The position numbers and the translations under genes are program-made. From Obelidium mucronatum (lineage: Eukaryota; Chytridiomycota; Chytridiomycetes; Chytridiales; Chytriomycetaceae): a stretch of 64,000 bases of DNA. The notes under the pieces are model-generated. The model ran no database searches. It was not told where the DNA came from and saw only the letters and a list, made by a program, of their open reading frames with translations. Below, piece after piece: positions 13,190-28,090 of this stretch (positions within the stretch are counted from its first letter, which is position 1; every line of letters begins with the position of its first letter). The stretch lies in assembly GCA_025765595.1 (NCBI GenBank), contig JAIVFH010000033.1, positions 124,001-188,000 of the forward strand, written 5' to 3'.

Positions 13190-13294
13190 AGTACGCGTAG
13201 AATCGATGTTCATTCTTTTGCAGATTCACGCGTGGTTCAGATGCGAGAAATTGGACCACTGGCAATTGTCCATTCCTTGCAGCCCTCACAACAG
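13190..13294 (-). pseudogene. Ankyrin-repeat relic, part 1 (split by the LTR element)
   Basis: On the minus strand this segment encodes an ankyrin module (RAARNGQLPVVQFLAS, then EPRVNLQK). Joining it to the sequence beyond the 3' LTR (from 24682 downward) with one copy of the 4-bp duplication keeps the frame and completes the module with LLLSDSDVDGHDNLA. The element therefore landed inside ankyrin-coding DNA. The continuation on both sides shows stops and frame changes, so the host copy was probably already decayed. Confidence 0.65.
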
Positions 13295-14265
13295 TGTGAA
13301 GTTTACACCTTCACGGGAGGGGTTTTTGACTTTCCCGCCTAGACTACTAACTTTGACAGCATTTTTATTTATTAATTGTTATTTATTATTCTTTATTGAT
13401 TTATTTGTGATTCTCTGTTTTGGGATTGTCGCGTCGATCAATAAAGATTTGGAGTTGTTGAGAATTGAAATGACCGGCATGGCGTGATGGCGACCATGTC
13501 CTTCCCAGGTCGCGTCAGTGATCGCATCTCTCACGAGCGAACTTTATAAGAGAGGGCTACGTCCCTCCAAGGGGATCCTATTGTGAGTTGATCAGATTCG
13601 GTGAGTGAACGCGAGCGAAATCAGTTGTGCCAAAGGGTATTCCGGAAGATACCTGGGCTTTAGTAGCTAGCGAGTATAGCGGTCTCGAGTTGGGCGAAGT
13701 AGCGCATGGGAATGATCCCAGGAAGTCGACTAGGGAGCTTTAAAGAGTCGTAGTAGGTGTGCACCCAGTCGCTGTTGGAGAGCCTGCTATTGGGATGATG
13801 ACCCAGGGTAAAGGCGACGGGTCCCACAGATCGTGCAGCCGAGCAATCAAACTAGGAGTGAGATTTAGTTTAAGGGTTGTAGGTGCGTAGGGACTTAGAG
13901 GAGTAGGGCCACCGCAGATCTCAATCTGATTGACATGGATCCGGAAGGGGTTGCGCTGGACCGCAAACCCAATGGAACCAAAAACACTCGCGAGTGGGGT
14001 AACGTGAGTAAAGATAGGAAGATTTCATTTTATTTGGGATTCAGTTAAGTTCTGTTATTTCTTTTATTTTATTTCTTTTATTCTGTTCTTTCACTTGTTC
14101 TTCTTTTAGGATCATTATTATAATTATTCCTCGTGAGTACGCCATTGCCGCGAATTTTACTGATGAGTATCTGGGCCACTGGACCACTCATCAGGCTCAA
14201 CCAACGACCCATGCATCTGGACTATCTTTATTTAAACGATAAGGAAAGACTAGGAATGTGTGACA
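13295..14265 (+). repeat. 5' LTR (971 bp)
   Basis: Starts TGTGAAGTTTACACC and ends AATGTGTGACA (TG...CA). The stretches I compared, covering most of the length, match the copy at 23708-24678 base for base, and the lengths are equal. It contains an A/T-rich patch near 13360-13450, the string TTTATAAGAG at about 13542, and a GTAACGTGAGT...TTTTAG pair in its last third that could act as a leader intron. The flanks share ACAACAG, so the exact end is ambiguous by up to 3 nt; the TG...CA rule was used. Confidence 0.95.
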
Positions 14266-14970
14266 GGGGGGCCCAACCTTTAAAAGTGAGTCTTTTTATG
14301 ACTGAAACTAATGTTTTGCGTGTTTATTCCGCTTTTTTTGACGTGGTCTTTGTGCCCGTTGCCCTTCGTCGGCCCCATAACAGTTGACTTTATGTCCTGT
14401 TGCCCTTCGCGGCTTAATATAGATTATTAAAAACAGAAATAGGGGGAACCTATGCCCAAATTTTGGGAATTTTTCAATGATTTTTGTTGAGTTGGGTTAG
14501 TTTAAATATTATAAGTAAAATACCCGACGCGTTTTTACGCGTTTCGAAAGTGGAAATGCAATAAATAGTATATTATTAAGCTACTCTTAAAGTTTGGGAG
14601 CGATTGGAGCGTGTCTGACACGCGTTTCAGTGATTTGAAGTGTTGGTGGTTAGAAGAAATCTCACTTACTACTGAACCGCTCCATCAAAAGTTATGAAAC
14701 TTTGTAAATGTATTTGAAAAATAGTTTCTACTCATTTCGCTTTGTCGAGTAACGCGTTTTCTGGTTTTCAGAAGAGAGTAGTGTTTAGTTAAACTCACCC
14801 ACCTACAGAAAAGGAAATGATTGGGAATAACAACACAAAACACTCAACATAAATCTATTCATTTTTATTCATTCAAATTACTAAATTAAAGAAAGGGGAT
14901 AAAGGGGATTATATTGAGAGTGTTGTAGAGGAGTGATTGTCGCATTTCAGACAATTCCTAAGTCAAAACA
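14266..14970 (+). other. Retrotransposon leader between 5' LTR and first ORF
   Basis: About 700 bp of A/T-rich DNA starting with a run of G then CCCAACC. A primer-binding site is expected directly after the LTR, but I cannot match it to a tRNA 3' end. No convincing coding sequence is present before the ATG at 14971. Confidence 0.6.
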
Positions 14971-16658
14971 ATGATCGCTGGCATCCAGTCCCTTTTCCCC
15001 CCACTCCAACAGGATGATCGGGTCAATTTCCACCGCCTCTACGACGTCGTGTACCACCTCCGTTAAGTCCAGGCAACTCTGCTGGCCTGGGGAGAAAAAG
15101 ATGAGGACTTTGTTATTGCATGTGCAAAAGCTTACCCCGACTGGAGAGGCGAGGCCAAGGAGGCATTCCGCTTGGTGAAGACCTCGAAGGCGGCCGTATC
15201 GTTCCCCGAGAAGGAGAAGGCCCGTCGCTACCTGAGAACATGGAGAAACAACGAGGTTAAAAATGGTAGAGGTCCGCTTACCCGCGAGGCAGCCGCATCT
15301 GAGCGCGAGGCGCGCTTTGTCTCCCTCCAGCCGGGTGTTCCTGCTCCCCAACCTGTTCCCTCCGTTGTCGCCAGCCCAGAAGTGGAACTCAGCGAAGCTG
15401 AGCTCCACAACGTCCCACTACCCGAGGACTCGGCATCTTCAACGCCCCGGGCTGGATCTCCTGCTCCTGCTACCGCTGGATCCGTTGAAGAGGACGTGGT
15501 GATGGGGGAGAGCATCAACATCAACCCCCCCTCACATCCGGTCGCAACCGTCGATCCGGTGACCATCGACCTGACCGTCGAAGCTCCGAAATCCGTAGCC
15601 GCGCCCGATGCCGTCGCTGACTTGCGGCAGTTGGTCCAAACCCAGGCGCAGGCGTTGGAGGCTCTACGGCGCCAACTTGCCAACCTCCAACCTGCCCTGG
15701 GCGCTCGATCGGCTGTTGAGGCTGTTCCAGTTGTCAACGCGCCCGTGGCCGCTGTCGTTCCTACGGCCGGTCCTTCAACTGCTCCTCGCTTGATGTTTCC
15801 TGCTGTTGCTGCTGTACCATCCTCCGCTGCTCCGTCAAACGGCGCCGCTCCGATGGCGTGGGAACCACGCGCTGTACCCGCTGGAGCGAATGGAACCGGA
15901 AGTGGTCCTGGGTATCATAGAGTGGATGAGTGGGGAAGTGGTGCAAATGTGGAGTGCCACCAACAAAATTATGGTCACTCACCTGGTCGCCGAGGACGCC
16001 GCTTCAAACAAATGGCCTACCATGAGCGTGAGTATCCCTCAGCTATGGCGGTTGGAGACCAGGATGTGGTCTTGGGTTGTTTGCTGTTGGAGCATTTTTT
16101 ACATTTTACATTTTTTTATTTTATTTGCGAGACTTTGGCTTTTGCCCACTCGCTGGCCCGCTGTAAAGCTCGCCCCAGCCGCATATCTGCGCGCTTTAGT
16201 GCCCTCTCTATTGGGTTTTATTTCCGTTTATTAACGGATTTTTATTTTTGTGTAGGCATGGAGGCTCTTCGTGGGATCGAAGCGGCTAGGAAGCAGGAAA
16301 CCTTTCGCTTCCTCATGGGAGAGGCGACGCAATTCCGAGCCCAGACTGGAGTCGAGGCACCCCTGGACTACAACTTTCGTAGTGCGCAGGTCTACAAATC
16401 GATGGGTGTTGTTGACCAGCAACACCGCACGTATGCGGGGAGACAGCGCCAACAGCGACAGCAGCGCTTCGACGCCAACCAGCGCCCACCACCACCGCCC
16501 CCCAACTACCCGCCGCCCGAAGTCGCTGGAAACGGCAGTCGTGGAGGACGCGGACGCGGAGGACACCGTAAGTGTCCAATCGCTGTGTTGGGTTTTATTG
16601 ACCTTGACTTACAACAGACCCAACAATGGGCTACCGCCATCCCGAAGGAAGCCAATAA
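14971..16658 (+). CDS. Retrotransposon ORF1: Gag-like/RGG protein, spliced model
   Basis: The ATG at 14971 and splice pairs at 15062-15130, 16028-16255 and 16568-16617 give a 446-residue protein ending at 16658. The second intron is T-rich, 228 nt long (a multiple of three) and free of in-frame stops, so unspliced RNA would also read through it. The protein has a Pro/Ala/Val-rich middle, a short coiled coil (LRQLVQTQAQALEALRRQL), then a Gln/Arg-rich and poly-Pro stretch and an RGG box (GSRGGRGRGG). It is probably a structural, RNA-binding protein. No CCHC knuckle is seen. Base composition is clearly more G/C-rich than ORF3. Without any splicing this frame continues into ORF2. Confidence 0.6.
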
Positions 16659-16798
16659 TTATTTTGATAATTATCGGAGTTTTTCGCGATTAAATAAATT
16701 TATTTTATTTTTCTCTTATTTTCGAGAATTGTCTTATCATTTTTTTAGACAAATATTTTTATTTTCAATAATACAAGTGTCAACTGCCACCACCACCC

Positions 16799-18828
16799 AT
16801 GACGTCGAGAAAGACCAAGAAGACCGCTTCAGGCGAGAAGGGGTTAGTCGGAATCTCCCAATGCCTTTTATTTTGGTCATATGTATTGGAGTGATCGCTG
16901 TGGTTGGAGCGATGTTTTGGAAACAACTCACCTGGTGCATGCGATCGCTAACAGCGCTTGTTCACAGACGCGATACCCGCAGCCAGTCAATGATGCTGGA
17001 GATCGGCTTCGGTGAGAAGGTTGATCACTTTCGAATTAGTTTCGACTATGGCGTTGAGGTCCAGACAGTCTCTGGATACGAAGCAACTCCGCTCGCGATG
17101 CCATTTGTCTACGCGGCAGCGATCTACTCGGTCGAAAATATTGATGAAGAGTTGCCCACAAAGTACACAGATGCGAATTTCCGTTCGCTGGTAAAGTTGT
17201 TGAAAGCTTCCAGAGTTGCGGGCGCAGTCATCCGCTGCAGATTTCCCGAACGATTGACCCACCCCTCAATGGACTTTGTATCGTTCCTCGAAATGGCGCA
17301 AAGTGGTGGAGTTAGTGGCTCCACTTCAACCTACGGTACTCCATCGAAGCAGGTCTCTCAGACCCCATTCTTGCCTGGGCAGTTCCCCAAATCAGTCAAG
17401 CCTATGGAAAAACCGAAAATTAGTACGTTGGAAACAGTCAAACAAGAAGAGGGACTTGTGGAAAGCGCAAGTGGCAGTTCTTTGGCAGCACATCGCTCAG
17501 GTAGCACTGCTACATACACCGCGGTTAAAACAGAGTCGCCATCAAAGGCGCCTAGGTTATCACCCACAAAGTCAAAGACATCTACGAAAGCTTCTTCGAA
17601 AGGAAAGAAGGCGTTTATTGAATCGCTTAGTTTCCCTGAGGGCAGAGATGATTCTTTGGGGTTTAGTGATGACTCTGAAAATGATAGCGGGGATCGCAGT
17701 GACAAATCCTCCGAGCCTTCAGAGGCCATTAGTCCTTCTGGTAGTGACGGGAGCAGTAGCGGTAGCTCTGGTAGTGAGTCGGATGATTCTGGGGTTCTTA
17801 GACAGAACCGCGCTGTTAAACGTAAAACTGAAGGTGAATATAAACCTGACCATTTGTCAAAACTACTGTTTGATAAGTTAATATCTGCTAATATGGTAGG
17901 AAAATTGACAAGTGCCTTGAATAAAATGGCAAATGCGTCCAGTATTGATAAGCTGTCAGCCTCAGTGACGCCTCTTGCTTCACCTGCCAACGTGAAGAAC
18001 TGGTTCAGAGAAGTGGAAATTCTAAGAAATCGTCTGGTTCCGGAAACCTATGAGACTAACGATGATTTTGTTCGAAAATTCCTCACTATGGTGCGTTATG
18101 AGGGCGCGTTTGGAACGCGTATTCGCGATGCTATTCTTCGCTTTGATAAGAAAACGGATGCGTGGAAAAAGTTGCGTAAATTAACTCGTAGTGTGGAGGG
18201 TGCAGACTTTGAATATGCGGACAAGAATGAATTGAAGCTGTCCTACAAAATTGGTACCTATAACTCTGTGATGTTGGGTCAGGACCTGGAAAATCGAAAC
18301 TCAGATTTGAGTGAACGTTTATCTGAAGCTGAGTTGAAGGATGTGTTGGTTGGACGCATTCAGCTTCAGTCCAAGACGGATTCCTATGTGTATAGAGTCT
18401 ACCGGAAGTTCCTTAAGTCTCAAATCTTTGTTACCTCGAAGGATTCAAACACGGGGGAAAAGGTTAAAAGAAAAGTTTCTTGGGACTATCGTAAGGTCAC
18501 CTACGACCAAGTAGTTACTGCGCTGTTTGACGCTGGATTTGACCAACGCTTTGCTGATGAAAATGACTTCAAGTTAAGAGAGAGTGGGAAGCAGAAGGCG
18601 AAGAGTGAGTTTTATGAGGAGAGAAGAGGGGAGTTGGAAATGGAGTCTAGACGTCAAAGATCTCAGACCCCTCCTCCTAAGCCTATTCCACAAACACCCG
18701 CACCTGTTACTCGCCCTAATAAGCAGGCGCCTCCTTCTCGTATTCCACCTTTTGGGATTTACTTTGTGGATACTCATCTTTCTGACCCCGGCGATGTTTC
18801 AATGCCCAAAGAAGTTTGGATGATGTAG
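16799..18828 (+). CDS. Retrotransposon ORF2: capsid-like Gag region
   Basis: A second ATG (16799) with a 125-nt intron (16843-16967) gives about 634 residues ending at 18828. Order: a basic N-terminus, a folded region of about 100 residues, a Ser/Lys/Asp-rich disordered stretch (about 17400-17800), then an alpha-helical segment with a retrotransposon-Gag look (VKNWFREVEILRN, FVRKFLTMVRYEG). A Pro-rich tail follows. The frame stops at 18826-18828, overlapping the ORF3 frame in a different register. Normally a zinc knuckle, protease and reverse transcriptase would follow here; they are absent. Confidence 0.65.
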
Positions 18829-21800
18829 CTTGGAATTTTGATGAAAGCTGTGTGGAGTCTTTCAATCAACTAGTAAAACAACTATGCGTTGACATGGTGT
18901 TGCATAATCCAACAGAAACCGATGAATTCATCATTGAGTGTGACGCATCAGGGAAGGCTTTAGGAGCTGCCTTGTATGTTAAAGGCGAAACGAATGCAAA
19001 GAAGGATAGATTGCCAGTTGCATTCATCTCTAGAACACTGTCTGATGTTGAGCAAAGATATAGCAACACAGACCGGGAAGGTTTGGCAGTAGTTTGGTCC
19101 ATAAATTGTTTTGACAAGTTCATTTGGAATCGGCCCGTGACTGTTGAGACAGACCACTCAGCCCTTATTCCACTCTTTAAGAAGGGGGATCTTACTGGCC
19201 GTTTTGCTAGATGGGCTTACCAGCTGGCTGACTATGACATAACATTAGTTCATGTGCCCGGTAGCACGCAGGTTGCCGCGGATACGTTATCCAGATTGGA
19301 CTTAAGTACGGACAATGTCCTTTCTCTGCGGAGGGAGAAAGATCTCAAAAAGGGACCCAGTATTGGCCCAGAGGACCAAAATGGTTTGGAAGAGGGGAGT
19401 GAGTCAAAACACCCACCACTTGAAACTTTATTGGACACATACATCTATGGCCACATAGAACCAACACCAGAAAAAACGGCTTATGCCATCAAAGTTTTTG
19501 AGAACTTGTATCAATCCTTGAGGCAGGAGGAGAGAGAAACAACACATGCGCTGATGAGCGACATGTCTCGCAGAATCATGAAAAAGAAGAAAGTGGAAAA
19601 GATTTTGTCTCTGGATGACATCCGAGGAACTCTACGGAAAGATGGTGGTGAGAAATGCCCATCCGTGAATATAACCACTTACAACGTTAATGGTTTGAGA
19701 AACATCCTGAAAAAATATGTTGAAAAGGGGGACCTTAAAAAGGCACCACTGGTAGAACAGTTGGAGCATTTCTTTAATTCACTGAGATGTAGTATTGTTT
19801 GCATCCAGGAGACTCGACTGGGAAAGGATAGCAAGAGTTCAAAGCTCATTGAAGCACTCAGTAGCCTTCCTCAGTGGAACTGTTCTCTCAACGATACGCA
19901 GACAGGATATGCAGGTGTTACTATGCTCTGGAGGAAAGAGCTCCTGGGGAACGTTTCCTTAGATAAGGTTGAGGTTGACAAACTTCTAAATGGGGAGCCA
20001 GATGAAGAAGGTCGCATTTTGACACTAAAACTGGCTGATATAGCAATAGTCACAGTCTATGTCCCTAGCGGGATGCGAAAGGCAGAACGCCACGACTATA
20101 AGATGACCTTCCTGGACAAATTAAAGTCCCATTGTGAGAACCTTTTAGAGAGTCACTATGTGTTTTTGGTAGGAGATATTAACATTGCGCCTGCAGCCGA
20201 GGATGTTTTACCCTTTGTTAGCGGTGAAGGCTTGGAGTCAAGGTTCCCTTCCACAATAACTAAAGAGGAGCAAGACTGGTTTGCCTCAATGAAGGATAAC
20301 TTTGTGGATGGTTTCCGGATGAAACATCCAGGGAAGCTTGGAGCCACTTGGCTACTTAAAGGTTTGGACAGGAAAGAATATCCTTTCTGGCGCATTGACC
20401 ATGTGCTAGTGGACAAACGTATCTCACCTGGACACTATGATGTGAGAGTTGATAGCAGTAGTGATACTCTCAGTGACCATCTTAGATTAGAGTTTCATAT
20501 GAATCTCCAGAAGTATGGGCTACCTACCCTACCGGACACCAGCAGTTGGCTGACACCTGGCACTGAGGAATATTATGCCTTCTTCCACGAGTGCAACTTG
20601 GGATTACAGACTGCACCTCTGTTTGGTTATGATGTCAAAAGGATCCGTGAGTTACAGTCAAAGGACCCTTACTTTGGTCCTATACTTAGATATATTCAGA
20701 GTGGAGACATAGATCTTGAGCTAGATTTTGATGTGATGAAGGCTGCTCGTTATTTTGTCCTAGACAAGCAGGACTTATTGTTCAGAGTCGCAGATGTGAC
20801 GGCAAAGACTGTCAGAAGACAGCCAGGCCTTATACAGTTATGCGTTCCTGATGGAATGAGAGTGGAGCTCTTTAAGAGACACCATGATGACTTGTATGGT
20901 AGCCACTTGGGTTATTCAAAGATACTCCCCACATTGATTGATAGATTCTGGTGGCCTGATATTGTGAAGGACCTTAAGGCCTATGTGGAGTCTTGTGAGA
21001 CTTGCCAGAAGTCTAAAGACCAGAGAATTAAGGTGGGTTACATGAACCCCATTCCTTTGGGAAATTACCCTAACGAAAGGATGTTTGTGGACTTTGTTGG
21101 TCCCCTAAAAGAGGCCAGCCGCACTGGTCATAAGTACATTATGGTTTGTGTCGATAGTTTCACAAAGTGGGTTGAAGCTATTCCCATACCTGACCTTACA
21201 GCAGAGACTGTTTGTCATGCTTTAAGTGAAGTATTCTCTAGAACAGGAATTCCTGTTTTCCTTCACACAGATGGTGGACCACCTTTTAGTGATAACCTGA
21301 TAAGATACTTAGGTACTCTTTTGGGTTTTGAGAAAACATTTACAGCACCCTACTGGCCTAGAGCTAATGGACCTGTTGAGAGGGTTATAAAGACTCTATC
21401 CCAGGAGATCAGGGCTTATATAAACAAGTTTGACTTTGATGATTGGGATGTCATCTTACCTTTTGCATTATTTGCCTATAGGACTCATGTCCACTCCACT
21501 ACTGGAGAGACGCCATTCTACATGTGGTATGGAAGGGATGCTAGACTGCCCACAGATATGTTTTTTGGGGTCAGCCCCCATGATGAGTTGTATCCAGAGG
21601 AACTTAATTCCCCTGTAACTGAGTCCTTAGAGACAAATCTGTTGGACAATAAGGTAGAAGGGCCTTTCCCCTCAATTGCAGTGGCACAGTTCACTAGTTT
21701 GAGTCAGTTTAAAGATAAACTTCACCGAAAGATACATGGCTATCATAAGGATGTGCCGTTGTGGGACGCGCTGAGGGATGTTTTTGACACATATCAGTTG

Positions 21801-23528
21801 GACGTCCTATGTCTGGTATATGACCCTAAGAAGAAAACTAATGATAACCGAGAACACATCCCACAGAGATTCTTCTTGAAAGATGGAACCTGTGTGGCGC
21901 TGGAGGGGCGAGTGTCGAGATTTGACCCGTCTAAGAGAAACTCTAGTGTGAAGTTGGACCGGAGCCAGGCTCCTAGAACTGTGGCTATTTACAGCAGGGT
22001 AGGTTTGATAAGAAATGGACCTACTACTATTTGGAATGGCACCAATGCCACAGGGATGGGACCATTCTTATCTTACGAGACTGGTGTTCTGTCATGTTCC
22101 TATAAGAGACAGTCAGTTTTGACAGGAGACAAGGATCTTTGTACAAAGATCATCTTTGATCCACGTCCTCAACAATTATTGATGACAGTTGATAGACCAC
22201 TGTGGAGTAATTCTGGGAATTTAGTATTGATCCAGAAGCCATGTTGGAGCATTGAATATGAAGTTGGTGAGCATGTGCTTGAAACATTATTCCACTACAT
22301 GCCAGATGAGTTGGATTTTGAACTCAAGACATGTTTGGTGTCAGACGAAGCTGAGATCCCTCAGGAGACATCTGAAGAGATGCGAAAAACCATCCTTCAG
22401 TCTATAAGAGCTGGGCTTAGAAGTACTTATGATATTATTAAGGAAAAAGTGTTAGCAGCTCAGAAAAGGGCAAAAGAGAAGTCATTAGAAGACGATAGTC
22501 CTCCTTATGATTTTGAGATTGGGGATAGGGCTTGGCTGGCCGTCCCTTTGGAGGCTGAGGCACAAAGATTGCATGTGGCAAGGAAGTTTGTCTTTCGCTG
22601 GGTTGGTCCAGTGCGAATTATTGAGCAGTCAGGAGGTGACTCTAAATCCCACTTTACAGTGGTTGAGACCTTTCCGGGGGGAGAAATAACTTGCAGGCGT
22701 GTGCATGTGAGCCGCTTGAGGCCCTTTAAACATAGGAAGCCTATTGACTCAGCGGAGGATGCTGTTAAGCTGGCTGGGACCACCTTTGGCGAGGAAATTG
22801 AGACTTGGATGAAGTCTACCCTCCTCAGTCGCCGACCTAGTGGCTCATACCAACCTCTTGACTCAACTCATGAGATGCTTCAGAGGAAGTTCAACCCTGA
22901 GTGGACACCTATTGATATTACAGACCCAAAGTATGTGATTGAGAATGTTAAACAGGTTAAGTTTGAGGCCGGAACTTACCAGTACCTTGTTGATTGGTTG
23001 CATCAAAATAAAGCTCGAAATACTTCCTGGCAGTTACATGTGGATATGCCACCAGTTATTCTTGAGGATGTTTGGGAGAATTGTATTCGGAATCAGAACC
23101 CCGAATACTATCGAAACTACAAAAGTTGGGTCTCTGGCAAGTGGGCTAAGTCCAACCCTATGCCGCAACCAATTAAGGTTGACGACGAGTTATTATTGAC
23201 TCCTCAAGTAGTTAGAGGCTATGTTAAAACGAGCTCTAGGAGAAAGAAGGCTAAAGTTAGCCAGAGGGCGGAAAAACAGGCCCTGGGTACCTTTAAGGCC
23301 CCTTCAGAAGTTGAGCAGAGAGTTCGCGTTGTTACTCGAAAGGGTACAACAAAATCTGCTGCAGCTTCAGGGTTGTCTACTAAGGCAGTAGATATATCCC
23401 CCAGTGTTGGAGTATCTGGTACAAAGAAAGTTGTGAGGAAAAAGAGCACAGCGAAACCAGATACTTCTCCACTAATGACACGGCAGCATACCATGAGGAC
23501 AAGGAGTGGGAAGCCTACCACACCTTAA
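18786..23528 (+). CDS. Retrotransposon ORF3: RNase H - EEP nuclease - integrase - chromodomain-like
   Basis: An open frame of about 1,580 codons with no ATG at its 5' end; it opens at 18786 after an in-frame stop. It begins in the reverse transcriptase connection (VAWNFDESCVESF). RNase H follows: ECDASGKALGA, the DREGLAVVW glutamate, TDHSAL and ADTLSRL. Next is an ExoIII/AP-endonuclease-type EEP domain, about 19664-20510, with every catalytic motif: TYNVNGL, IQETR, VYVPSG, GDINIAP, RIDHVLV, LSDH. Integrase follows, about 20870-21580: HHCC finger (HHDDLYGSHLG, CETCQKS) and the D, D, E core (FVDFVGP, HTDGGPPF, RANGPVERV). An unknown insert of about 250 residues (21590-22370) then precedes the SH3-like C-terminal domain (GDRAWLAVP) and a chromodomain-like fold at 22930-23090 (YQYLVDWLHQN). 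Confidence 0.88.
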   Translation, partial: PRRCFNAQRSLDDVAWNFDESCVESFNQLVKQLCVDMVLHNPTETDEFIIECDASGKALGAALYVKGETNAKKDRLPVAFISRTLSDVEQRYSNTDREGLAVVWSINCFDKFIWNRPVTVETDHSALIPLFKKGDLTGRFARWAYQLADYDITLVHVPGSTQVAADTLSRLDLSTDNVLSLRREKDLKKGPSIGPEDQNGLEEGSESKHPPLETLLDTYIYGHIEPTPEKTAYAIKVFENLYQSLRQEERETTHALMSDMSRRIMKKKKVEKILSLDDIRGTLRKDGGEKCPSVNITTYNVNGLRNILKKYVEKGDLKKAPLVEQLEHFFNSLRCSIVCIQETRLGKDSKSSKLIEALSSLPQWNCSLNDTQTGYAGVTMLWRKELLGNVSLDKVEVDKLLNGEPDEEGRILTLKLADIAIVTVYVPSGMRKAERHDYKMTFLDKLKSHCENLLESHYVFLVGDINIAPAAEDVLPFVSGEGLESRFPSTITKEEQDWFASMKDNFVDGFRMKHPGKLGATWLLKGLDRKEYPFWRIDHVLVDKRISPGHYDVRVDSSSDTLSDHLRLEFHMNLQKYGLPTLPDTSSWLTPGTEEYYAFFHECNLGLQTAPLFGYDVKRIRELQSKDPYFGPILRYIQSGDIDLELDFDVMKAARYFVLDKQDLLFRVADVTAKTVRRQPGLIQLCVPDGMRVELFKRHHDDLYGSHLGYSKILPTLIDRFWWPDIVKDLKAYVESCETCQKSKDQRIKVGYMNPIPLGNYPNERMFVDFVGPLKEASRTGHKYIMVCVDSFTKWVEAIPIPDLTAETVCHALSEVFSRTGIPVFLHTDGGPPFSDNLIRYLGTLLGFEKTFTAPYWPRANGPVERVIKTLSQEIRAYINKFDFDDWDVILPFALFAYRTHVHSTTGETPFYMWYGRDARLPTDMFFGVSPHDELYPEELNSPVTESLETNLLDNKVEGPFPSIAVAQFTSLSQFKDKLHRKIHGYHKDVPLWDALRDVFDTYQLDVLCLVYDPKKKTNDNREHIPQRFFLKDGTCVALEGRVSRFDPSKRNSSVKLDRSQAPRTVAIYSRVGLIRNGPTTIWNGTNATGMGPFLSYETGVLSCSYKRQSVLTGDKDLCTKIIFDPRPQQLLMTVDRPLWSNSGNLVLIQKPCWSIEYEVGEHVLETLFHYMPDELDFELKTCLVSDEAEIPQETSEEMRKTILQSIRAGLRSTYDIIKEKVLAAQKRAKEKSLEDDSPPYDFEIGDRAWLAVPLEAEAQRLHVARKFVFRWVGPVRIIEQSGGDSKSHFTVVETFPGGEITCRRVHVSRLRPFKHRKPIDSAEDAVKLAGTTFGEEIETWMKSTLLSRRPSGSYQPLDSTHEMLQRKFNPEWTPIDITDPKYVIENVKQVKFEAGTYQYLVDWLHQNKARNTSWQLHVDMPPVILEDVWENCIRNQNPEYYRNYKSWVSGKWAKSNPMPQPIKVDDELLLTPQVVRGYVKTSSRRKKAKVSQRAEKQALGTFKAPSEVEQRVRVVTRKGTTKSAAASGLSTKAVDISPSVGVSGTKKVVRKKSTAKPDTSPLMTRQHTMRTRSGKPTTP

Positions 23529-23707
23529 TAATGTCCGTTGCCATGTTATCCTTTATTTTATTTTATTTTGTTTTGTTTTATTTTGGGTTTGAGGCTGTGG
23601 AGCTCTAGTTACTAGGACGTCACTAACCGAAACCGCGATCTTTGAGGGCTTCTTCTTGGTTGTACCCGTAGTTGACGGAGCAACTAGGAGGTGGTTTTTG
23701 GGGTCAC
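23529..23707 (+). other. Retrotransposon 3' untranslated part and polypurine-tract region
   Basis: About 180 bp between the ORF3 stop and the 3' LTR. It holds a TTTTATTTTA-type tract and, near the LTR, a mixed purine stretch (ACTAGGAGGTGG) that may serve as the plus-strand primer. No long uninterrupted polypurine tract is visible. Confidence 0.5.
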
Positions 23708-24678
23708 TGTGAAGTTTACACCTTCACGGGAGGGGTTTTTGACTTTCCCGCCTAGACTACTAACTTTGACAGCATTTTTATTTATTAATTGTTATTTATT
23801 ATTCTTTATTGATTTATTTGTGATTCTCTGTTTTGGGATTGTCGCGTCGATCAATAAAGATTTGGAGTTGTTGAGAATTGAAATGACCGGCATGGCGTGA
23901 TGGCGACCATGTCCTTCCCAGGTCGCGTCAGTGATCGCATCTCTCACGAGCGAACTTTATAAGAGAGGGCTACGTCCCTCCAAGGGGATCCTATTGTGAG
24001 TTGATCAGATTCGGTGAGTGAACGCGAGCGAAATCAGTTGTGCCAAAGGGTATTCCGGAAGATACCTGGGCTTTAGTAGCTAGCGAGTATAGCGGTCTCG
24101 AGTTGGGCGAAGTAGCGCATGGGAATGATCCCAGGAAGTCGACTAGGGAGCTTTAAAGAGTCGTAGTAGGTGTGCACCCAGTCGCTGTTGGAGAGCCTGC
24201 TATTGGGATGATGACCCAGGGTAAAGGCGACGGGTCCCACAGATCGTGCAGCCGAGCAATCAAACTAGGAGTGAGATTTAGTTTAAGGGTTGTAGGTGCG
24301 TAGGGACTTAGAGGAGTAGGGCCACCGCAGATCTCAATCTGATTGACATGGATCCGGAAGGGGTTGCGCTGGACCGCAAACCCAATGGAACCAAAAACAC
24401 TCGCGAGTGGGGTAACGTGAGTAAAGATAGGAAGATTTCATTTTATTTGGGATTCAGTTAAGTTCTGTTATTTCTTTTATTTTATTTCTTTTATTCTGTT
24501 CTTTCACTTGTTCTTCTTTTAGGATCATTATTATAATTATTCCTCGTGAGTACGCCATTGCCGCGAATTTTACTGATGAGTATCTGGGCCACTGGACCAC
24601 TCATCAGGCTCAACCAACGACCCATGCATCTGGACTATCTTTATTTAAACGATAAGGAAAGACTAGGAATGTGTGACA
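23708..24678 (+). repeat. 3' LTR (971 bp)
   Basis: Same length as and, where compared, identical to the 5' LTR. It is followed by ACAG, the duplicate of the 4 bp before the 5' LTR. Confidence 0.95.
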
Positions 24679-24900
24679 ACAGCTAGATTGTCATGCCCAT
24701 CAACGTCGGAATCTGAAAGCAGCAATCGCACTACATCAAAATTCCATCAAGAAAAGCTGAATCAGCGCGTGGATTTTGAAGGAATAGGTGTACAATCGAT
24801 GTATGGCCCAATTGACACGTCTAATTCAGAACGGCAGGATTTGCTTGCAGACCACCTTGACAACTTCCAATTGATTGCATCTGACTGCCCAAGTAAGTAA
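24679..24900 (-). pseudogene. Ankyrin-repeat relic, part 2 (beyond the 3' LTR)
   Basis: On the minus strand the DNA next to the LTR encodes FDVVRLLLSDSDVDG, an ankyrin outer helix and turn in frame with the segment at 13190-13294. Farther up, another ankyrin-like helix (CNQLEVVKVV) is in a different frame, with a stop between, so the gene is broken. On the plus strand a 75-codon frame ends at a GTAAGT, but it is probably the antisense shadow of this relic. Confidence 0.55.
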
Positions 24901-26088: not shown

Positions 26089-26160
26089 GCAGTAGTTGTA
26101 TAGTGGTTATTATGCCTGCCTTCCAAGCATGCGACCCGGGTTCGAATCCCGGCTACTGCA
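26089..26160 (+). tRNA. tRNA-Gly (anticodon UCC), second copy
   Basis: Identical over all 72 nt to the gene at 3681-3752 but on the plus strand. Same acceptor stem, TCC anticodon, GGTTCGAATCC B-box and single C.U mismatch in the anticodon stem. It is followed within about 20 nt by a T-rich stretch (CGATTTTTTTC) suitable as an RNA polymerase III terminator. Confidence 0.95.
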
Positions 26161-26217
26161 CTTTTCGATTTTTTTCTTCGATGCATGTGAGATGATGGTT
26201 TTGAAGGAATGTGTTTT

Positions 26218-26285
26218 ATCACTCACTTCTCGAGGAGTGAGTCTCTGCAAAATCACTCACTTCTCGAGGAGTGAGTCTCTGCAAA
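26218..26285. repeat. Two tandem 34-bp units containing an inverted repeat
   Basis: The 34-bp unit is repeated exactly twice (26218-26251, 26252-26285). Each contains ACTCAC, TTCTCGAGGA, then GTGAGT, an imperfect palindrome centred on CTCGAG, followed by CTCTGCAAA. A related GAGTGAGT...CTCTGCA string marks both later boundaries of the adjacent ~900-bp duplication (about 27155-27183 and 28053-28082). Confidence 0.9.
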
Positions 26286-28082
26286 ATTTATTTTGATGAG
26301 GAGGAGGAGGAGGAGGAGGAAGCAAAAAATAAAGGTTTCACTGCATCCACACGGTCAGTCTCTTCCAAGGCATCAACGGCGGCCGTTTCTGCCGTTTCAA
26401 CACGGCGAAACAATGGTTTGGTGCCGGCTCCACCCATGGCGACTGTGGGTGATGTCCGTTCTTCTGTCCCAGCAATGCTGGTACCGTAAGTCCACACTCA
26501 AATCGAATCTACAAGTACATCTATCCAAGCCAGAACTGCGTTATTGCAGATGCGAGATTAAGTTAAACGGCTCCTTGAGCCGACGATTCTGCAGGTGCCC
26601 GGAAGCAGCGGCCGAATCATCCTCACCTTTCCAATAACAGCTGTGGATGATGTAGACCAACTCAGGACGATGACATCAGTAGAATTCTTGGAACACTTGG
26701 CGAAAAACAGCGAACCGCACAATCAGCTGCCGCTTGCGAATGATTGAGCTTGAGGACCTGAATTAGTCACCTGAGGTGAATACTGGACTCTCGCAGTGTA
26801 AAACAACAAAGACAGGTTTCTCTTACAGTAGCAGAAGTACTTTCCAGTTATTGAGGACCTTAGCTCGATCCAGCACTCTCGCATTGCGAAGCAGGCAATG
26901 CAATCAAACTCTAGACGAAGAACGTGAATAAAGAAATTTGCTTGCAACGTATTCCATCAGAAATACTTTCCATTACTCGGGTTGTATCTGAGACGATATC
27001 TTATGGACAGTTACAAGAACGCGACACAGTTGTCGTGCTAATGTTGTGCCCAAAAAACTTTACGTGACCAAACCGTCATTACCCACAACAAATAAAAAGA
27101 ACAAGATTGAATTGAAATCATGTCATAAATCTCATTTTTTTTAATCAGTGTAAAGAGTGAGTGATCCATAGGGAAACTCTGCATTTATTTTGATGAGGAG
27201 GAGGAGGAGGAGGAAGCAAAAAATAAAGGTTTCACTGCATCCACATGGTCAGTCTCTTCCAAGGCATCAACGGCGGCCGTTTCTGCCGTTTCAACACGGG
27301 GAAACAATGGTTTGGTGCCGGCTCCACCCATGGCGACTGTGGGTGATGTCCGTTCTTCTGTCCCAGCAATGCTGGTGCCGTAAGTCCACACTCAAATCGA
27401 ATCTACAAGTACATCTATCCAAGCCAGAACTGCGTTATTGCAGATGCGAGATTAAGTTAAACGGCTCCTTGAGCCGACGATTCTGCAGGTGCCCGGAAGC
27501 AGCGGCCGAATCATCCTCACCTTTCCAATAACAGCTGTGGATGATGTAGACCAACTCAGGACGATGACATCAGTAGAATTCTTGGAACACTTGGCGAAAA
27601 ACAGCGAACCGCACAATCAGCTGCCGCTTGCGAATGATTGAGCTTGAGGACCTGAATTAGTCACCTGAGGTGAATACTGGACTCTCGCAGTGTAAAACAA
27701 CAAAGACAGGTTTCTCTTACAGTAGCAGAAGTACTTTCCAGTTATGGAGGACCTTAGCTCGATCCAGCACTCTCGCATTGCGAAGCAGGCAATGCAATCA
27801 AACTCTAGACGAAGAACGTGAATAAAGAAATTTGCTTGCAACGTATTCCATCAGAAATACTTTCCATTACTCGGGTTGTATCTGAGACGATATCTTATGG
27901 ACAGTTACAAGAACGCGACACAGTTGTCGTGCTAATGTTGTGCCCAAAAACCTTTACGTGACCAAACTGTCATTACCCACAACAAATAAAAAGAACAAGA
28001 TTGAATTGAAATCATGTCATAAATCTCATTTTTTTATTTATTTTCTGTATAAAGAGTGAGTGATCCATAGGGAAACTCTGCA
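26286..28082. repeat. ~900-bp tandem duplication (copies 26286-27182 and 27183-28082)
   Basis: The two copies are nearly identical; differences seen include GAG-repeat length, a few substitutions and a T/A-r​ich length change near the right end. Each starts with ATTTATTTTGATGAGG and a (GAG)n run and ends at a GAGTGAGTGATCC...CTCTGCA string. Each copy contains coding-like stretches: an acidic then Ser/Ala-rich frame ending at a GTAAGT, and a downstream segment reading AVDDVDQLRTMTSVEF to a stop. No complete gene can be built. Copy 2 ends 8 bp before the PRMT5 ATG, so the PRMT5 upstream region has been duplicated. Confidence 0.85.
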
Positions 28083-28090
28083 TTTTGGAA

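What the first reader, a model, noticed from the sequence alone, without database searches (positions are those of the whole stretch)
19664..20510. AP-endonuclease-type (EEP) domain between RNase H and integrase of an LTR retrotransposon
Seen: within the uninterrupted third frame, directly after RNase H and before the HHCC integrase finger, about 280 residues carry all motifs of the ExoIII/APE EEP fold in order (NVNGL, QETR, YVPSG, GDINIA, RIDH, SDH). Known: Ty3/Gypsy pol order is PR-RT-RNaseH-IN, and APE-type nucleases belong to LINE-type non-LTR elements or DNA repair. Inference: a captured nuclease has become part of a Gypsy polyprotein and has been kept under selection, since its catalytic residues are intact. 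It could nick targets, process cDNA ends, or repair abasic sites in cDNA. I know of no described LTR family with this layout.
Basis: partly seen in the sequence, partly recalled or inferred. Interest (0 to 1): 0.88.

Follow-up and report, generated by a model that had tools for sequence, protein, structure and literature searches.

The report
DNA-repair nuclease inside LTR retrotransposon polyprotein
A family of jumping genes in this genome carries, inside its own protein chain between RNase H and integrase, a nuclease domain of the DNA-repair (exonuclease III / AP endonuclease) family, which likely repairs or trims the element's DNA copy before it is inserted; related proteins occur in other public sequences, and I found no description of this layout in the papers I could search.

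Summary
Window 19668-20483 encodes a complete ExoIII/AP-endonuclease (Xth) domain between RNase H and integrase of a Ty3/Gypsy-type element with identical 971-bp LTRs and a 4-bp TSD. Pfam, NCBIfam, PDB and structure searches agree. It is no assembly join: the genome holds diverged lineages with the same layout (53-60% identity in the domain), and three unnamed database proteins have the domain directly after RNase H (35-42% identity; integrase follows in two, the third ends before it). A second retroelement lineage here carries an Xth domain in front of RT or, in C579, again after RNase H; in its front-placed copies dN/dS is 0.03-0.14. A widely sampled RT tree rejects one clade for the carriers, so the domain was probably gained, or exchanged, more than once. 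Correction: this copy lost zinc knuckle, protease and RT by a deletion of about 3.2 kb that sister copies do not have; it is a recent non-autonomous derivative. Likely role: repairing or trimming cDNA, as lentiviral dUTPase in the same slot protects cDNA. Activity is untested. New variant of a known kind.

The parts
13295..14265 (+). 5' LTR (971 bp, TG...CA), identical to the 3' LTR
   Evidence: 971 of 971 identical; flanked by ACAG
13291..13294 (.). Target-site duplication ACAG, left copy (right copy 24679-24682)
   Evidence: sister C183 has TAAT/TAAT, type-B L022 has TTAG/TTAG
15067..18828 (+). gag-side frame of the element (no Pfam hit), ended by TAG just after the deletion junction
   Evidence: 97.5-98.4% identical to the C183 and C77 sister copies
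18818..18825 (.). Junction of an internal deletion of about 3.2 kb (8-bp microhomology GGATGATG); zinc knuckle, protease and RT lost from this copy
   Evidence: L009 474 and 3720 meet here; L009/L010 carry CCHC, Asp_protease_2 (below cut-off) and RVT_1 in the missing stretch
18918..19235 (+). RNase H of the reverse transcriptase (PF17917)
   Evidence: E 5.9e-27
19236..19667 (+). Linker of about 144 aa between RNase H and the nuclease
19668..20483 (+). ExoIII/AP-endonuclease (Xth, EEP) domain with intact catalytic residues
20844..21020 (+). Integrase HHCC zinc domain (PF17921)
   Evidence: E 1.3e-18
21069..21380 (+). Integrase core (PF00665) with intact D,D35E (codons at 21090, 21270, 21378)
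21657..22355 (+). Insert of about 230 aa of unknown function between integrase core and the integrase C-terminal part (bounds by eye)
   Evidence: alignment; no Pfam hit
22524..22730 (+). Integrase C-terminal part (GPY/F-like, by eye)
   Evidence: conserved in C33, C601, C625; label recalled
22926..23051 (+). Chromodomain-like C-terminus
   Evidence: By eye; no Pfam hit here; the C-terminal region of P0022 hits PF00385 at 23.8 bits, just below the cut-off of 25.1
23708..24678 (+). 3' LTR (971 bp)

Best explanation
This is a Ty3/Gypsy LTR retrotransposon whose Pol polyprotein contains an ExoIII/AP-endonuclease (Xth) domain between RNase H and integrase, and the domain likely acts inside the particle on the element's own cDNA, cutting at abasic sites and clearing blocked or surplus 3' ends so that reverse transcription finishes with ends the integrase can use. 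Shown: domain identity, catalytic residues, predicted fold, constant position in this family, occurrence in outside proteins, purifying selection on the related domain of a second lineage, intact integrase catalytic triad, 4-bp TSDs. Inferred: that the protein is made and cut out of Pol, that it is active, and that its substrate is the cDNA. The window copy is a recently inserted deletion derivative that was probably moved with enzymes supplied by intact relatives.
For: Domain: Pfam, NCBIfam, PDB, fold. The tryptophan next to the catalytic RxD, which lines the abasic pocket in APE1/ExoIII (role recalled), is kept in 7 of 8 type-A rows and in 21 of 21 database ExoIII-like proteins, and is absent from 2 of 2 LINE endonucleases of this genome. 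7 of 7 LTR-element domains scanned pass the TIGR00633 cut-off; the 1 LINE domain scanned does not. Type-A layout in own genome: 11 of 11 tabulated copies; outside: P0022, P0023 (ends before IN), P0024. Integration looks integrase-made: LTRs, D,D35E, and 4-bp TSDs in 2 of 2 type-A copies for which both full LTR flanks were read. Precedent for a cDNA-guarding enzyme in exactly this slot: dUTPase lies between RNase H and IN in non-primate lentiviruses (PMC4531489, passages); a DEDDy 3' exonuclease is carried as ORF3 by bdelloid LTR elements (PMC5408684, passages).
Against: No biochemical, expression or particle data. For type A the dN/dS between lineages could not be computed (dS saturated); the near-identical C625/C128/C182 trio gives 0.77, 1.02 and no value on 8, 10 and 2 changes, which does not show constraint. 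Type B/C domains other than P0028 have Met or Phe in place of the tryptophan (5 of 5 B, 2 of 2 C) and P0024 has Leu, so abasic-site specificity is less likely there. The same eight catalytic residues are also present in the two LINE endonucleases, so they alone do not tell repair from nicking. Protease sites around the domain were not looked for.
Confidence: 0.45

Rival explanations
1. The domain mainly works as a 3'-5' exonuclease on cDNA termini, removing the few bases beyond TG/CA or primer remnants so that integrase receives correct ends; lesion repair is secondary.
For: By eye, the type-A purine-rich tract ends about 4 bases before the 3' LTR (GGGGTCAC|TGTG) and in type B one extra base lies between U5 and TGG, so ends may need trimming. 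3' exonuclease activity is common in this family (recalled). The neighbour in Pol is integrase.
Against: Ordinary Gypsy elements manage without it, since integrase processes its own ends (recalled); the exact cDNA ends here are unknown.
Confidence: 0.22
2. The domain nicks host DNA, as in LINEs, so that the element can insert by target-primed reverse transcription or at pre-existing lesions, beside or instead of integrase.
For: Same fold as LINE endonucleases (established knowledge); catalytic residues intact.
Against: Full LTRs, intact D,D35E and 4-bp TSDs are the signature of integrase insertion; the domain passes the Xth model while the LINE domain scanned does not, and LINE domains are remote in the trees.
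Confidence: 0.1
3. The domain counters a host defence acting on cDNA, for example uracil or abasic sites made by host deamination and glycosylase.
For: dUTPase in the same slot keeps uracil out of lentiviral cDNA (PMC4531489); the carriers' RTs are not one clade, as expected if unrelated elements met a shared pressure.
Against: No such host defence was looked for or identified; an AP endonuclease without re-synthesis could destroy rather than save cDNA; exchange of the domain between elements would explain the pattern as well.
Confidence: 0.12
4. Chance chimera, nested insertion or assembly join.
For: The window copy is itself rearranged (deletion at 18818-18825).
Against: Diverged copies on other contigs and three outside proteins have the domain at this place, in continuous frames in C601 and P0022-P0024; the deletion lies outside the nuclease.
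Confidence: 0.01

Closest known systems
Ty3/Gypsy LTR retrotransposons, chromovirus-like
   Same: LTRs, zinc knuckle-PR-RT-RNase H-IN order in sister copies, HHCC and D,D35E integrase, likely chromodomain
   Different: An Xth nuclease domain and a linker between RNase H and IN, and a further insert of about 230 aa after the IN core; no tRNA-type primer site recognised
Non-primate lentiviruses with dUTPase between RNase H and IN (PMC4531489, passages read)
   Same: Extra DNA-quality enzyme in the same slot of Pol
   Different: dUTPase cleans the nucleotide pool; here the domain is a nuclease predicted to act on DNA itself; unrelated fold (recalled)
LINE-type APE endonucleases (non-LTR retrotransposons)
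   Same: EEP family and the eight catalytic residues
   Different: Element has LTRs, integrase and short TSDs; the domain passes the Xth model, the LINE domain scanned does not, and LINE domains of this genome are remote in the trees
KnitGypsy-Dnmt3, a Gypsy element with a DNA methyltransferase in Pol (PMC5890265, passages read)
   Same: DNA-modifying enzyme captured into Gypsy Pol and reported under purifying selection (Ka/Ks < 0.2)
   Different: Methyltransferase, not a nuclease
Bdelloid rotifer LTR elements with DEDDy exonuclease ORF3 (PMC5408684, passages read)
   Same: LTR element carrying a 3'-processing nuclease
   Different: Separate third ORF and a different (DnaQ-like) nuclease; here EEP fold inside Pol
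Cellular ExoIII / APE1 / ARP AP endonucleases
   Same: Xth family model, fold, catalytic residues, tryptophan beside RxD
   Different: 25-31% identity to the ExoIII-like proteins found; part of a retrotransposon polyprotein

Membership tests
Ty3/Gypsy LTR retrotransposon | Two LTRs and a short target-site duplication | tested here: met
   971-bp identical LTRs, ACAG/ACAG
Ty3/Gypsy LTR retrotransposon | PR-RT-RNase H-IN order | tested here: met
   Met for the family: zinc knuckle, RT and RNase H above cut-off in L009, L010 and L016, IN behind them; the protease hits are below cut-off (20.8, 19.5 and 14.7 bits against 24.3). In the window copy zinc knuckle, PR and RT are deleted
Ty3/Gypsy LTR retrotransposon | Gypsy-type RNase H and HHCC + D,D35E integrase | tested here: met
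   PF17917, PF17921, PF00665; D759, D819, E855, spacing 35
Ty3/Gypsy LTR retrotransposon | tRNA-type primer binding site after the 5' LTR | tested here: inconclusive
   GGGGGGCCCAACC follows the LTR, no TGG start; other priming not examined. Type B has TGGCGAGCGTACC one base after the LTR
Chromovirus branch | Chromodomain at the C-terminus of IN | tested here: inconclusive
   No Pfam hit in the window; 23.8 bits against a cut-off of 25.1 in relative P0022
ExoIII/AP endonuclease (Xth) family | Score above the TIGR00633 cut-off | tested here: met
   118.6 bits against 99.05; the narrower models are not passed (TIGR00195 100.6 against 182.55; NF010489 66.1 against 503; NF008733 39.5 against 280)
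ExoIII/AP endonuclease (Xth) family | Catalytic residues and fold | tested here: met
ExoIII/AP endonuclease (Xth) family | AP endonuclease / 3' exonuclease activity | not testable with these tools
   Needs enzyme assays
Non-LTR (LINE) retrotransposon | No LTRs, no integrase; APE-RT in one ORF | tested here: not met
   LTRs and integrase present

The most novel reading that the evidence does not exclude
LTR retrotransposons have repeatedly captured an ExoIII-type nuclease, in three separate RT lineages and at two places in Pol, forming dual-endonuclease elements that pair an integrase with a lesion-reading nuclease, so that cDNA repair, or even the choice of insertion site at abasic lesions, is encoded by the element itself.
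Probability: 0.15. Interest if true: 0.92.

Novelty: new variant of a known kind. Interest (0 to 1): 0.75.

Why it matters
APE-type nucleases are commonly taken as a mark of non-LTR elements; a screen of 1237 fungal genomes, read in passages, assigns Exo_endo_phos to the LINE order (PMC10799480). LTR elements with an ExoIII domain break that rule and can be mis-annotated. They also offer a natural test of whether reverse transcription in particles is limited by abasic or blocked cDNA ends, a question so far approached through lentiviral dUTPase. Gain or exchange of the same enzyme by distant Pol lineages in one genome suggests a shared selective need.

Tried and rejected
LINE origin of the domain: rejected; it passes the Xth model, the LINE domain scanned does not, and both LINE domains are remote in the trees. 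The low-identity own-genome matches (27-33%) were first taken for LINEs; Pfam on five of their frames from four loci showed LTR-type Pol with EEP before RT in 3 of 3 long Pol frames, a partial one in L026, and no clear domain in one ORF1.

Single origin of all carriers: not rejected by the domain trees (p-AU 0.199; 0.26 and 0.307) nor by the small RT tree (0.185), but rejected by the RT tree with 50 of 58 outside proteins added (p-AU 0.004 with P0028, 0.0014 without, a 'quick' tree). The domain could have been exchanged between lineages, so the number of captures stays open; P0028 against type A alone was not tested. C579 branches outside type B in the RT trees but inside it in the larger domain tree, an unexplained disagreement.

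Searches that led nowhere: whole Pol scored on the EEP region alone, 2841 candidates, 0 hits (the later profile search did find relatives, so one search was not sensitive); viral contigs with the type-A domain, 52 stretches, 0 relatives; with the type-B domain, 1 locus, by eye an ExoIII-like gene in a prokaryotic or phage contig. Not every own-genome copy of type B was fetched. The second structure job was not used. Metagenome and other eukaryote genomes could not be scanned.

Literature: ten searches of open-licence PMC papers: nine for the layout and one on dUTPase. Several lists were capped (searches show 20 of 38, 21 and 36). Passages were read in 11 papers; the other listed papers were seen as titles and, in part, starts of abstracts. 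None of what I saw describes an EEP domain in an LTR element. PMC3248453 mentions fungal 'complex transposons' with many additional domains, shown in a supplementary figure I could not see. Repbase notes, supplements and subscription journals were not searchable, so prior description cannot be excluded.

Full report
What is there. The window holds one LTR element, 13295-24678: two 971-bp LTRs, identical in all 971 positions, starting TG and ending CA, flanked by ACAG on both sides. The frame 18816-23528 encodes RNase H, an Exo_endo_phos domain, the integrase zinc domain and the integrase core, each above its Pfam cut-off. The nuclease domain spans 19668-20483 in the NCBIfam Xth model, 118.6 bits against a cut-off of 99.05.

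State of this copy. No RT, protease or zinc knuckle is found in the two long frames of the window element. Sister copies on C183 and C77 (97.5-99.8% identical by stretch) have zinc knuckle, RT and a protease hit below its cut-off in a stretch of about 3.2 kb that is missing here; the two ends meet at 18818-18825, an 8-bp microhomology. The deletion shifts the frame and the gag-side frame ends in TAG at 18828. With identical LTRs and a TSD this is a recent, non-autonomous insertion (inference). The C183 copy has TAAT on both sides and LTRs 99.79% identical.

The same layout elsewhere in this genome (type A). The domain search of the genome gave 28 matches. From the coordinates of RT/RNase H and integrase matches I tabulated 34 copies by hand, out of 111 and 114 matches: the gap from RNase H to integrase is 1530-1601 nt in 9 type-A copies, 1109 nt in 2 (C191, C132, which have a deletion inside the domain), and 201-422 nt in 23 ordinary Gypsy copies. 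The C77 copy (1534 nt by the same coordinates) and the broken C140 and C473 copies were not in that table. The domains of C601, C625 and C128 are 60, 54 and 53% identical to the window's. C191 and C132 may be two haplotypes of one copy, so copy counts are upper limits.

Elsewhere in sequence space. A profile search with three type-A Pol frames against 5.8 billion proteins scored 7992 candidates and gave 58 hits, of which 4 carry PF03372: P0022 (RNase H-EEP-H2C2-rve-chromodomain-like), P0023 (RT-RNase H-EEP, then it ends) and P0024 (RNase H-EEP-H2C2-rve), with 42, 40 and 35% identity; and P0028, with EEP at the N-terminus before RT-RNase H-IN. A sensitive scan of the 58 with a home-made domain profile, which had these four among its rows, found no fifth (next best E 0.17). 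The sources are unnamed contigs of 4.9-11.8 kb; their organisms are unknown.

A second lineage (types B and C). In L022, L024 and L025 the order is EEP-RT-RNase H-integrase zinc domain, with rve also found in L024 and L025. L022 has 1007-bp identical LTRs and a 4-bp TSD; L024 has long terminal repeats but no matching TSD at the ends read. In C579 one 865-aa frame reads RT-RNase H-EEP and the integrase zinc domain follows in another frame; no rve was found there. This is the type-A order, though its RT and EEP go with type B. Further copies of both layouts are suggested by coordinates alone.

Selection. In type B, NG86 dN/dS of the domain is 0.121, 0.138 and 0.108 for C93/C151/C295 and 0.031 for C26-C196 (112 synonymous, 26 non-synonymous changes). 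For type A, synonymous sites are saturated (dN 0.38-0.40); the near-identical C625/C128/C182 trio gives 0.77, 1.02 or no value on 2-10 changes, which is uninformative or points to recent decay.

Origin. In the domain trees type A including P0022-P0024 is one group (100/98), type B+C without P0028 another (95/89), both among ExoIII-like proteins; neither joins the LINE endonucleases, and long branches limit finer statements. One common group of all carriers is not rejected by the domain trees (p 0.199, 0.26, 0.307) nor by the small RT tree (0.185). With 50 outside proteins added, the RT tree rejects it (p 0.004 with P0028, 0.0014 without). Hence the Pol backbones are at least two, probably three, separate lineages, and the domain was captured repeatedly or exchanged.

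How it probably works. The integrase triad is intact (D759, D819, E855) and the TSDs read are 4 bp, so insertion is most likely by integrase. A nuclease of DNA-repair type in the slot between RNase H and integrase is best read as acting on the cDNA in the particle: cutting at abasic sites and clearing 3' ends. Non-primate lentiviruses put dUTPase, another guard of cDNA, in exactly this slot (PMC4531489, passages). Expression, processing, activity and substrate are all untested.

Known or new. Nine searches of open PMC papers for the layout, and passages of eleven papers, showed no LTR element with an EEP domain; Exo_endo_phos is assigned to the LINE order in a 1237-genome fungal screen (PMC10799480, passages). 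Enzyme capture as such has precedents: DNA methyltransferase in a Gypsy Pol (PMC5890265, passages) and a DEDDy exonuclease ORF3 (PMC5408684, passages). I therefore call it a new variant of a known kind.

Noticed in passing
window 21657-22355: Insert of about 230 aa between integrase core and C-terminal part, alignable among three type-A lineages, without Pfam hit; P0022 has a longer one there (by eye).
   Followed up: partly
window 14266-14300: The sequence after the 5' LTR (GGGGGGCCCAACC) is no recognisable tRNA primer site, unlike type B (TGGCGAGCGTACC one base after the LTR); priming of type A is unexplained.
   Followed up: no
L022 and L023 (C93, C151): Two type-B copies differ unevenly along their length: dS 0.293 in EEP, 0.144 in RT, 0.007 in IN, which suggests recombination between elements.
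   Followed up: no
window 26286-28085: Tandem duplication of about 905 bp, 98.1% identical, preceded by a tRNA-Gly at 26089-26161 and a 34-bp tandem repeat at 26218-26287.
   Followed up: partly
L022-L024: Type-B LTRs hold repeated units of roughly 75-85 bp.
   Followed up: no
L055, L056 (C150, C51): Two near-identical host APN2-like genes, by eye with introns, possibly two haplotypes kept apart in the assembly.
   Followed up: no
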